This document shows, one piece after another, positions 4,687-55,505 of a stretch of DNA of 64,000 nt. The DNA is from Sulfolobales archaeon. GTDB lineage: Archaea; Thermoproteota; Thermoprotei_A; Sulfolobales; AG1. Both the position numbers and the translations under genes were made by a program. Location: NCBI GenBank assembly GCA_038881635.1, contig JAVZPJ010000003.1, positions 62,001 to 126,000 on the forward strand, written 5' to 3'. A model generated the notes under the pieces. That model worked only from the letters and a program-made list of their open reading frames with translations, did not search any database and was not told the DNA's origin. Every line of letters starts with the position of its first letter. Positions within the stretch are counted from its first letter, which is position 1.

Positions 4687-5841
4687 TCATAGGATTCTTA
4701 GAGAATTTCTAAATAGTGTGATTCTAATACTCTCAATACCTCCTCTCTTTATAATGCTGAGATATATGTTTCCAGATCTATCCGGATTAAGCCACTCCGA
4801 TTTTAAGCCTATTAATGCAGCTTCTAGACCTTCTTCAATATAGTTTCTAAACCCAAATATCTCTCCACCATATACCGTAGCATACTTGAGCACCTCACGA
4901 GGATCAAAACCAAAGTGTTTTAATCTCATGACATCTACTAATACCTCTGCCTCTCTCCATAGATCTGGTTTAATCCATCCTGCATTATCTGTTCCAAGAC
5001 CTATTCTAAGATCTTCTATCTCGAACATATTCTTATTAACCTCCCCAGATCCGAACCACATATTGCTTCTAGGACATATTATAAGACTCACCCCTCGATC
5101 CCTTAGCTCTAACAACTCGTCAAAGCTTAGATAAATCCCGTGAACCACAGCCCTAAGCCTTCTCAAATCTCTTAATCTCTCGAAATCTCTTTCTTCTCTA
5201 ACATCTCTAGTCTCAGCTACGTGAGATATAATCCACGCATCATGTTCTCTTGCATAGGAATCTATTAATTTTAATAACTCATGATCATAGTAGTGAGGAG
5301 AAGAAATACCAATCCATTTTGTCATACTAAGTGCTTCTCTTATCTCTTTTTCCAAGGAATCTCTAGACTCCGGATCTGGCATATAAGATGGAATATAGAT
5401 CATATCATTAAAACTTTCTCCAGCCTTCACACCCTGTCTGAGACCTTTCAATCCCATCTCTCTAAAGTCATTCAACATCATAACACCAGAATCTCTGGAA
5501 AGTCTGAGAGCTCTAGCTATATATCCTGGAACCTCTTTCTCGAATTTTCTGAGCATGATATATTTAAGACCGTAAGGTTCTCCAACAAGAGAGTCTATAT
5601 CGAGATCCCATCCAACCTCTTCAAAACCTATGTCAGCCATATGAATGTGCGAGTTGACTAGAGGGGGCATTATAATACCACCCCTGAGATCTATTCTAAT
5701 AGTTCTCGAATCCATAGATGTTGAGAAGCCTTTCAAACCTATACTACCTATAATACCATCCTCAACGTATATCGAAACATTTCTCTTAATCTCAAGTTCT
5801 CTACCCATTAGAAGTATATCTGCTTCTATGATATACCTCAT
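4687..5841 (-). CDS. Amidohydrolase-family metal-dependent hydrolase
   Basis: A TIM-barrel amidohydrolase of 384 residues. Metal-site motifs are all present: NSHIHMADIG (HxH), the SHVAET histidine, VHGIYLS, and the GTDNAG aspartate. The SRSNMWFGSG loop resembles cytosine/adenosine deaminase-like members, so it may deaminate or hydrolyse a nucleobase-like compound; the substrate is not identifiable. The upstream region has a TATA-like GATTTATACTATA and a 6-bp inverted repeat CTATAC/GTATAG (about 5861-5878) that could be an operator. It follows the Nip7-like gene on the same strand with 51 bases between them. Confidence 0.8.
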   Translation of the reverse strand: MRYIIEADILLMGRELEIKRNVSIYVEDGIIGSIGLKGFSTSMDSRTIRIDLRGGIIMPPLVNSHIHMADIGFEEVGWDLDIDSLVGEPYGLKYIMLRKFEKEVPGYIARALRLSRDSGVMMLNDFREMGLKGLRQGVKAGESFNDMIYIPSYMPDPESRDSLEKEIREALSMTKWIGISSPHYYDHELLKLIDSYAREHDAWIISHVAETRDVREERDFERLRDLRRLRAVVHGIYLSFDELLELRDRGVSLIICPRSNMWFGSGEVNKNMFEIEDLRIGLGTDNAGWIKPDLWREAEVLVDVMRLKHFGFDPREVLKYATVYGGEIFGFRNYIEEGLEAALIGLKSEWLNPDRSGNIYLSIIKRGGIESIRITLFRNSLRIL

Positions 5842-53541: not shown

Positions 53542-54090
53542 TTGGGTTCTTCAAAGAAGGCTGTCTATTGTGAGATCTGCGGGAGAGAGATATCAGAACA
53601 CGCAGTATTTAAGATATATGTTGAAGGTTCTGAATTTACAGTATGCCCAGAATGCTATTCTAAGCATATTATGGGTAGATCTAGAAATTCTCAGCAGAGG
53701 GCTAGCACCAGTAGTCTTCAGTCTAGTAATATTAGTAATATTAGAAGGACTACAACTTCTACTCCTCGAAGGACCTCTACTTCTTCTAAGATTATCGAAA
53801 AATATGAGATAGATCCTATGTTTCCTGAGATCATAAGAAGAGCTAGAGAAAAGAAAGGTCTTACCACTAAGGATCTAGCATTGAAACTTAGAGAGAGCGA
53901 GAATGTTATAAAGAGAATCGAAAGCGGACGGCTCACACCCACAATAGAACTTGCGAGAAGAATCGAAGATATCTTAGGAGTTAAGATACTGGTACCCCGT
54001 GTAGAAGAGAAAGAAATTCCTGAAAGCACTAAAAAGGATCTTAGGGAAGATCTAACATTAGGAGATCTTGCAACAGTGAAAAAGAAGTAA
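53542..54090 (+). CDS. mbf1: Multiprotein-bridging factor 1, archaeal type
   Basis: A 182-residue transcription or translation cofactor. The N-terminal zinc ribbon is YCEICGREISEHA...VCPECYSKH, a Ser/Thr/Arg-rich linker runs over residues 48-85, and the helix-turn-helix is at 98-150 (IIRRAREKKGLTTKDLALKLRESENVIKRIESGRLTPTIELARRIEDILGV). In archaea MBF1 has been linked to the small ribosomal subunit. The start is TTG. It stands upstream of the C/D RNA candidate and trm56. Confidence 0.92.
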   Translation: MGSSKKAVYCEICGREISEHAVFKIYVEGSEFTVCPECYSKHIMGRSRNSQQRASTSSLQSSNISNIRRTTTSTPRRTSTSSKIIEKYEIDPMFPEIIRRAREKKGLTTKDLALKLRESENVIKRIESGRLTPTIELARRIEDILGVKILVPRVEEKEIPESTKKDLREDLTLGDLATVKKK

Positions 54091-54212: not shown

Positions 54213-54278
54213 AGAAGAATGATGAAAAGCTCTAAACCGATACACTGGAATGAGGAAACCTGTCTCAGCTGAAAGACT
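54213..54278 (+). ncRNA. Candidate C/D box guide RNA targeting 23S rRNA
   Basis: Box C is ATGATGA (54219-54225), a C'-like ATGAGGA is at 54250-54256, a 12-base guide AACCTGTCTCAG follows (54257-54268), and box D is CTGA (54269-54272). Total length and the 12-base spacing fit archaeal guides. Eleven guide bases are complementary to TGAGACAGGTT, part of a conserved 23S rRNA stretch just 3' of the peptidyl-transferase region. TCTAAACC (54231-54238), before the D' area, complements GGTTTAGA about 20 bases upstream in the same rRNA. Both targets are from memory. A TTATTAAGG box lies about 30 bases upstream. Confidence 0.6.
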
Positions 54279-54293
54279 CGAGGTATCACCAAT

Positions 54294-54902
54294 ATGAGTA
54301 GTGAGAGAAGAGTATTTATAGAAGATCTAAGACCTAGAAGTTTCGTACTAAGAATCGGACACAGACCTGAAAGAGATAAGAGAATTACAACACATGTAGC
54401 TCTTGTGTCCAGAGCTTTTGGTGCTTCAGGCTTTATTCTAGCAGGAGAATCAGATCCTAATATAAAAAGAAGTATTGAGAAAATACTTTCCAGATGGGGA
54501 GGTTCTTACTATTTCGTGTATGAAGAATGGAGAGACTATGTCAGAGAAACGAGAATTTGGAGAAGTAAAGCAGGTAGGAGGTGCATAGTTCATCTAACCA
54601 TGTACGGGCTTCCTGTAGATTCTGTGATTAACAGGATCAGAGATGAATGTGAGGAAGTTCTGATCATAGTAGGTGCTGAAAAGGTTCCTAGAGAGGTATA
54701 CGAGCTCGCCGATTATAATGTATCAATAGGTTCTCAACCTCACTCGGAAGTTTCAGCACTTGCATTATTTCTAGACAGACTATATAGAGGAGCTGAACTA
54801 TATTTAGAGTTTAGAGATGCGAAGATAAGAATCCTGCCTAGTGAGAGAGATAAGAAGGTTATAGTCTTTCCAAATCCTCGGAGAGAAGTCTCTAATCATT
54901 AG
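54294..54902 (+). CDS. trm56: tRNA cytidine-56 2'-O-methyltransferase
   Basis: Methylates the ribose of C56 in the T loop of tRNA. The N-terminal [33 protein letters not shown] and C-terminal [41 protein letters not shown] are the SPOUT-knot signatures of this family. Its 202 residues match family length. Lineages that lack this enzyme, such as Pyrobaculum, use a guide RNA instead. The adjacent guide candidate has another predicted target, so both systems seem to be at work here. Confidence 0.93.
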
Positions 54903-54971
54903 AATAGCTATGAGTATAAAGACCAAAGAATATATGCGAATGATGAAATGATATTATATAGGAGGTATCTC

Positions 54972-55505
54972 ATGAATAGCGTTTCATCTAAGATCTTAGA
55001 ATTCATCGGAGAAACCTACGGAGAAAATGCTAAGAAAGTTTTCAGCAAGTTATACGAGCTAGCCAAAGAGATAACAGACCATGAGCTAGCCGAGCTTGTT
55101 AAGATTCATGAAGCTGAGGTTAGAAAAATACTCTATCAATTATCTGAAGAAAGACTTGTATCCGTAAGAAGGGTTAGAGATAGAGAGACAAATTACTACA
55201 TATACTACTGGAAGATTAACGTACGAGAACTTCCTAGAGTTCTTTTAAATAGAAAGAAAGCAGTTATTGAAATTCTGAGAAAAAGATTAGATTATGAAGA
55301 GAAAAGAAACTTCTACTGCCCACGTTGCGGTCGTGAGTTTTCATCGGAGGAGGCTTTAGAATATGAGTATACATGTCCTAGCTGTTCTGAGATTCTTCTA
55401 AGTAGAGATAAGAGCGATCAATTAAAACGATTGAGAGGACTTATAGAGAATCTAGAGAGAGAGGTGAAGGAGGAGGAGAAAAAAATCCTCTCTAGTAGTA
55501 GCTGA
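54972..55505 (+). CDS. tfe: Transcription initiation factor E, alpha subunit
   Basis: Aids promoter opening by archaeal RNA polymerase. Winged helix at residues 1-85 (KVFSKLYELAKEITDHELAELVKIHEAEVRKILYQLSEERLVSVRRVRD); zinc ribbon FYCPRCGREFSSEEALEYEYTCPSCSEI at about 108-135; C-terminal coiled coil. GGAGGT directly upstream fixes the ATG at 54972, not the earlier 54948. The last codons cross an A7 run (55479-55485) and the start of a C5 methyltransferase frame, which is +1 relative to this gene. Confidence 0.94.
   Translation: MNSVSSKILEFIGETYGENAKKVFSKLYELAKEITDHELAELVKIHEAEVRKILYQLSEERLVSVRRVRDRETNYYIYYWKINVRELPRVLLNRKKAVIEILRKRLDYEEKRNFYCPRCGREFSSEEALEYEYTCPSCSEILLSRDKSDQLKRLRGLIENLEREVKEEEKKILSSSS

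What the first reader, a model, noticed from the sequence alone, without database searches (positions are those of the whole stretch)
54213..54278. Unannotated C/D box guide RNA before trm56 with a good 23S rRNA match
Boxes C, C' and D with a 12-base guide are visible. The guide complements 11 bases of a conserved 23S stretch (TGAGACAGGTT), and a second stretch in the same RNA complements GGTTTAGA just upstream in 23S. Two neighbouring targets in one guide are common in archaea and unlikely by chance. By the D-box-plus-five rule the methylated base would be the G in TGAG. The rRNA sequence is recalled, not looked up.
Basis: partly seen in the sequence, partly recalled or inferred. Interest (0 to 1): 0.58.

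Follow-up and report, generated by a model that had tools for sequence, protein, structure and literature searches.

The report
Conserved archaeal C/D guide RNA
A short stretch of DNA in front of a tRNA-methylase gene in an archaeon encodes an ordinary type of guide RNA that most likely directs a methyl group onto one base beside the ribosome's catalytic centre, and its guide has changed in step with the ribosome in related archaea.

Summary
A C/D box sRNA lies at about 54213-54278 (+): C 54219-54225, C' 54250-54256, 12-nt guide 54257-54268, D 54269-54272. The host 23S pairs with 10 bases of the guide (not 11), and N+5 predicts 2'-O-methylation of host 23S G2910 (E. coli G2599, helix 93). The case rests on comparison. 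The module is found in 174 of 214 genomes of the order and in 0 of 327 sampled genomes of the phylum outside it. Where boxes vary, the guide does not: 73 of 73 single mismatches fall in boxes, and guide position 11, free in the search, is A in 110 of 110. In two lineages the 23S target changed and the guide changed with it (31 of 31 and 6 of 6 genomes). Selection thus acts on guide positions 2-11; positions 1 and 12 drift. It is a new, unannotated member of a known kind; Rfam has no family for it. Methylation and transcription are untested.

The parts
54213..54278 (+). C/D box sRNA gene (ends approximate; no transcript data)
   Evidence: layout; conserved module in 174 of 214 genomes of the order
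54219..54225 (+). box C, ATGATGA
   Evidence: sequence; a relaxed C box is also upstream in 31 of 32 assessable crenarchaeal hits and 0 of 55 bacterial hits
54226..54236 (+). D' guide; 6 contiguous pairs to 23S TTTAGA, N+5 would be host G2899 (E. coli G2588)
   Evidence: not conserved, so weak
54237..54240 (+). probable D' box, CCGA (the alternative CTGG at 54245-54248 leaves one base before C' and no GA)
   Evidence: spacing and layout scan; inference
54250..54256 (+). box C', ATGAGGA
   Evidence: aligned in relatives
54257..54268 (+). D guide, AACCTGTCTCAG; 54258-54267 pair with host 23S 2907-2916
   Evidence: positions 2-11 invariant in 110 of 110 places; co-change with 23S
54269..54272 (+). 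box D, CTGA
54294..54902 (+). trm56 (tRNA ribose 2'-O-methyltransferase), start codon 21 bases after box D
   Evidence: Pfam PF01994, E 2.1e-45
53542..54090 (+). upstream helix-turn-helix protein gene; a similar C-terminal coding end precedes the RNA in G001
   Evidence: L003 sequence
54948..55505 (+). downstream TFIIE-alpha (TFE) gene
   Evidence: PF02002, E 6.5e-21

Best explanation
It is an archaeal C/D box sRNA. Its C/D and C'/D' motifs are expected to bind L7Ae, Nop5 and fibrillarin; the D guide pairs over exactly ten bases with the loop and 3' strand of 23S helix 93, and fibrillarin methylates the 2'-O of the base opposite the fifth guide nucleotide, host 23S G2910 (E. coli G2599), three bases from A2602 of the peptidyl-transferase centre. 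Shown here by sequence comparison: the layout, the pairing, its conservation and its coevolution. Inferred from the known family: protein binding, methylation and any folding role. The D' half may touch the adjacent 23S segment (E. coli G2588) in this species but is fast-changing and may be idle.
For: Layout found once in the window, null mean 0.05. Ten-base match to own 23S including N+5. Exact C'-guide-D pattern: 38 of 214 genomes of the order, reversed control 1 of 214; up to one mismatch: 108 of 214, control 1; guide fixed and boxes loose: 127 of 214, control 0; union 137. All 73 mismatches lie in boxes, none in the guide, although 9 of 17 fixed bases are guide; the free base at guide position 11 is A in 110 of 110, while positions 1 and 12 vary. 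C box upstream, which was not in the pattern: 31 of 32 assessable crenarchaeal hits, 0 of 55 bacterial hits. Coevolution: family f11 has 23S CGAGACAGG instead of TGAGACAGG in all 23 genomes with a match (of 31), and 31 of 31 carry the guide with the matching A-to-G at position 2; genera g14 and g66 have 23S with a swapped helix-93 pair (AGC..GCT for ACC..GGT) in 5 of 6, and 6 of 6 carry the guide with the matching C-to-G at position 10. Of 76 genomes with an unchanged target seen, 68 have the unchanged guide found.
Against: No RNA or modification data. The pairing to the base next to box D is missing (G opposite G). No clear terminal stem in the window RNA by eye, and only a weak pairing excess over 48 records, the window included (z 2.2 and 2.7 in two of four registers, 1.0 and -0.7 in the others); no thermodynamic structure (z 0.96), which as I recall is usual for this class. 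Eight of 76 genomes with an unchanged target have no unchanged guide found; one of these, G171, has the changed guide beside an unchanged-type 23S contig, possibly contamination. D' guide and genomic place are not conserved.
Confidence: 0.95

Rival explanations
1. The element is a k-turn leader of the trm56 mRNA that binds L7Ae and regulates trm56; the guide match is secondary.
For: Box D lies 21 bases before the trm56 start, and the order HTH gene, RNA, trm56 is kept in the genus-mate. An abstract reports that L7Ae RIP-seq suggests translational regulation in archaea (PMC5539422, title and start of abstract in the search listing).
Against: In other genomes the module lies on another contig or place than trm56, and of 30 trm56 loci held only the two of this genus carry the module in front. 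Conservation is concentrated in the guide, which a leader would not need.
Confidence: 0.03
2. A genuine C/D sRNA used mainly as an rRNA chaperone for helix 93 and the peptidyl-transferase ring, bridging two nearby 23S segments, with methylation secondary.
For: D and D' matches lie 6 bases apart in 23S; such dual contacts are proposed as chaperones (PMC4644070, section 11).
Against: The D' contact is not conserved and not clearly enriched next to the target over 53 distinct D' guides (85th percentile).
Confidence: 0.1
3. Chance C/D-like sequence without function.
For: Ten-base rRNA matches before CTGA occur elsewhere in the window (6 other sites).
Against: 174 of 214 genomes of the order carry the module, controls 0-1, plus compensatory guide changes.
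Confidence: 0.01

Closest known systems
Archaeal C/D box sRNAs (sR families; Dennis et al. 2015, PMC4644070)
   Same: C, D', C', D boxes, 12-nt D spacer, N+5 rule, target in the helix 90-93 hotspot; 262 of 489 sRNAs there are double guides with targets within 100 nt.
   Different: The site (E. coli G2599, about 2873 in their alignment by offset from 2880 = C2606) is not named in their main text; their supplement could not be read. Order-wide identity of the guide is higher than the about 17% of sites that they report as shared between species.
sRNAs guiding helix-93 base 2880 (E. coli C2606), e.g. Sac sR13 and Pca sR30
   Same: Overlapping stretch of 23S.
   Different: Their N+5 base is 7 nt further 3'; a different guide register, hence a different RNA.
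Rfam sR60, sR44, sR5
   Same: Box layout; weak hits over this RNA, 11.0-14.5 bits.
   Different: All far below the gathering scores of 40-50; different guides.
Thermoplasmata C/D RNA in L105 and L150
   Same: Carries the same ten-base guide.
   Different: Used as a D' guide and shifted by one base, so N+5 is E. coli A2600; looks like an independent solution.

Membership tests
archaeal C/D box sRNA | boxes C (RUGAUGA) and D (CUGA) near the ends | tested here: met
   54219-54225 and 54269-54272; present in relatives
archaeal C/D box sRNA | internal D' and C' boxes with short loop | tested here: met
   C' ATGAGGA clear; D' CCGA off consensus by one base, 9-base loop
archaeal C/D box sRNA | guide of at least nine consecutive Watson-Crick pairs to rRNA that includes the fifth base before D (criterion of PMC4644070) | tested here: met
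   ten pairs, positions 2-11
archaeal C/D box sRNA | guide-target pairing kept in evolution | tested here: met
   co-change in two lineages
archaeal C/D box sRNA | second (D') guide with a target | tested here: inconclusive
   8 bases incl. two of the D' box, local P 0.012-0.018, not conserved
archaeal C/D box sRNA | terminal stem and k-turn | tested here: inconclusive
   weak pairing excess, z 2.2 and 2.7 in two of four registers, over 48 records; not evident in the window copy
archaeal C/D box sRNA | stable small transcript bound by L7Ae, Nop5, fibrillarin; methylated target | not testable with these tools
   needs RNA
an existing Rfam family | score over gathering threshold | tested here: not met
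   none for the window RNA nor over the RNA in 12 loci scanned, including family f11

The most novel reading that the evidence does not exclude
This sRNA family is a natural experiment that measures, in living lineages, the stretch of guide that a C/D RNP reads: exactly positions 2-11 before box D are under pairing selection (both ends tested, by compensatory change at positions 2 and 10 and invariance at 11), while the base touching box D and position 12 drift. One lineage shows a three-way co-change: a helix-93 base pair in 23S flips and the guide flips with it. The modification, next to A2602, would then be kept by selection across an archaeal order.
Probability: 0.65. Interest if true: 0.5.

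Novelty: new member of a known kind. Interest (0 to 1): 0.4.

Why it matters
Archaeal C/D guides are described as fast-evolving and seldom shared between species (PMC4644070, section 9; PMC7994747, passages). Here one guide is kept across nearly a whole order while its partner guide and its genomic place keep changing, and it tracks two rRNA changes. That gives an annotation for a missed gene family, predicts Gm2599 in helix 93 across the order, and offers an evolutionary check on the ten-pair limit reported from in vitro work (Yang et al. 2016, as cited in PMC7089733).

Tried and rejected
Rfam gathering scan of the window and permissive scan around the RNA: no family. Thermodynamic folding: uninformative. 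D' guides of relatives tested for a shared nearby target: not significant. trm56 association: genus only (in one search a bare 7-base piece of the guide also turned up in L010, L013 and L016, without the module's printed upstream sequence). A strict whole-window search for other C/D RNAs found only this one. Paper searches for the target number and the guide sequence gave nothing relevant; a search on archaeal ribosome modifications gave reviews and Dennis 2015 (listing only). One script row was an artefact: L087 counted as having a C box because its locus is cut at the edge; it is left out of 31 of 32. The four archaeal hits outside the crenarchaeal group (L105, L112, L132, L150) had no upstream C box by that test and are not in the 32; two of them, L105 and L150, are the Thermoplasmata D' version. 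In one search, 7 of 55 records had no C box by the script's rule and were dropped from the stem test.

Full report
What is there. The region between a helix-turn-helix gene (53542-54090) and trm56 (54294-54902) holds ATGATGA (box C, 54219-54225), CCGA (probable D', 54237-54240), ATGAGGA (C', 54250-54256), a 12-base spacer AACCTGTCTCAG and CTGA (D, 54269-54272). A strict scan for this four-box layout on both strands of 64 kb found this place and no other; 20 Markov-simulated windows gave one hit in all.

Target. The window lies in a 1.4-Mb genome, 97% complete. Its single 23S match holds TGAGACAGGT at 2907-2916 of the 23S, G000:C1:112239-112248 by my arithmetic; window 54258-54267 pairs with all ten. 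Counting five bases up from box D gives host G2910. In E. coli numbering this is G2599, by counting back from C2606, the anchor in PMC4644070 section 7; the E. coli sequence itself is recalled. That places it in helix 93, three bases from A2602.

Conservation. The exact C'-guide-D pattern occurs in 38 of 214 genomes of the order, the reversed control in 1. With one mismatch allowed: 108 of 214, control 1. With the ten guide bases fixed and only TGA of C' and C.GA of D required: 127 of 214, control 0. The union is 137; with the changed guides below (31 and 6 genomes) it is 174 of 214. All six genomes of the window's own family have it. In a phylum-wide sample it is in 39 of 71 genomes of the order (one mismatch) and 0 of 327 outside. 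Among named records the crenarchaeal hits are titled Desulfurococcales, Pyrodictiaceae, Acidilobaceae, Ignisphaera, Thermogladius and others. The genus-mate G001 has a contig of the same length as the record titled Desulfurococcales archaeon EvPrim.Bin15 (L153).

Independent check. The pattern contains no box C. A box C 15-45 bases upstream of C' was present in 31 of 32 assessable crenarchaeal hits, 0 of 55 bacterial hits and 0 of 4 other archaeal hits of the named scan (L087 removed as cut).

Footprint. Among the 110 places, 73 carry one mismatch, and all 73 are in C' or D; the guide supplies 9 of the 17 fixed bases. Guide position 11 was left free and is A in 110 of 110; position 12 (A50 C33 G20 T7) and position 1 (G69 A21 C13 T7) vary. 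So positions 2-11 are kept, ten in all. This agrees with the ten-pair limit attributed to Yang et al. 2016 in PMC7089733 (passages); the original was not held.

Coevolution. The 23S stretch was sought in the same 214 genomes (104 with a match). In family f11, 23 of 31 genomes had a match, all with CGAGACAGG instead of TGAGACAGG. A search with the matching guide found it in 31 of 31 (up to three mismatches were allowed, but one place in each genome keeps CGAGACAGGT whole), with a box C upstream in the 12 loci printed, by eye. The name Sulfolobaceae for f11 is my inference. In genera g14 and g66 of f2, 5 of 6 genomes have 23S GAGCGTCGTGAGACAGCTCGG, where a helix-93 pair is swapped; 6 of 6 carry the guide with the matching change, again with box C. 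The sixth, G171, shows an unchanged-type 23S on a contig whose GTTCAG signature resembles family f5, perhaps contamination. Unchanged targets were seen in 76 genomes, and 68 of these have the unchanged guide found. These are two evolutionary events, not 37.

The D' half. With D' = CCGA, six guide bases pair with TTTAGA and two more pairs use the D' box; N+5 would be host G2899 (E. coli G2588). An 8-base match to the 200 bases around the D target has P 0.012-0.018 against window stretches. In the genus-mate the D' guide is different, and in relatives it takes many forms; 53 distinct D' guides are not clearly enriched next to the target. I treat it as possible, unproven.

Context. Box D ends 21 bases before the trm56 start; the neighbourhood is kept only in the genus-mate, so it looks like one of the common settings of archaeal sRNA genes, close to or overlapping a neighbouring gene (PMC7994747, section 8).

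Known or new. The kind is well known. No Rfam family covers it in the window or in the 12 loci scanned; Rfam sR14 found in three f11 loci is a different RNA about 200 bases away. The main text of PMC4644070 does not name this site (sections 5, 7, 9, 11, 16 and term search read), but its supplement may list it for Sulfolobus or Ignicoccus. Searches of the held library for the guide sequence found no archaeal paper (listing).

Noticed in passing
L105 about 5573-5594, L150 (and L113): Thermoplasmata MAGs hold a C/D RNA with a strong terminal stem whose D' guide has the same ten bases but one base closer to the box, so N+5 would be E. coli A2600. L113, titled 'bacterium', has nearly the same sequence and is probably archaeal.
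   Followed up: partly
many of L157-L179, also L034, L036, L037: Many relatives share a D' guide with CCACGGG; host 23S has CCCGTGG at 143, 1133 and 1717. In several (L161, L170, L172) the D'-C' interval looks like a hairpin instead of a short loop.
   Followed up: partly
genome G021: A one-contig, 99% complete genome with no Trm56 match; it may modify tRNA position 56 another way.
   Followed up: no
family f5 23S: GTTCAG instead of GTTTAG in most f5 genomes with a match: a change at a normally constant peptidyl-transferase base (E. coli U2586 by my count).
   Followed up: no
G169:C44, G171:C28: 23S fragments that look foreign (bacterial-like and f5-like), suggesting contamination of these assemblies.
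   Followed up: no
L183, L187, L193: Rfam sR14 lies about 200 bases from the f11 version of this RNA: a small cluster of sRNA genes.
   Followed up: no
L001 1501-4730: Host 23S spans 3230 bases against 2987 model positions; an intron or expansion may be present.
   Followed up: no
G082 and G117: Two copies of the guide module on different contigs.
   Followed up: no
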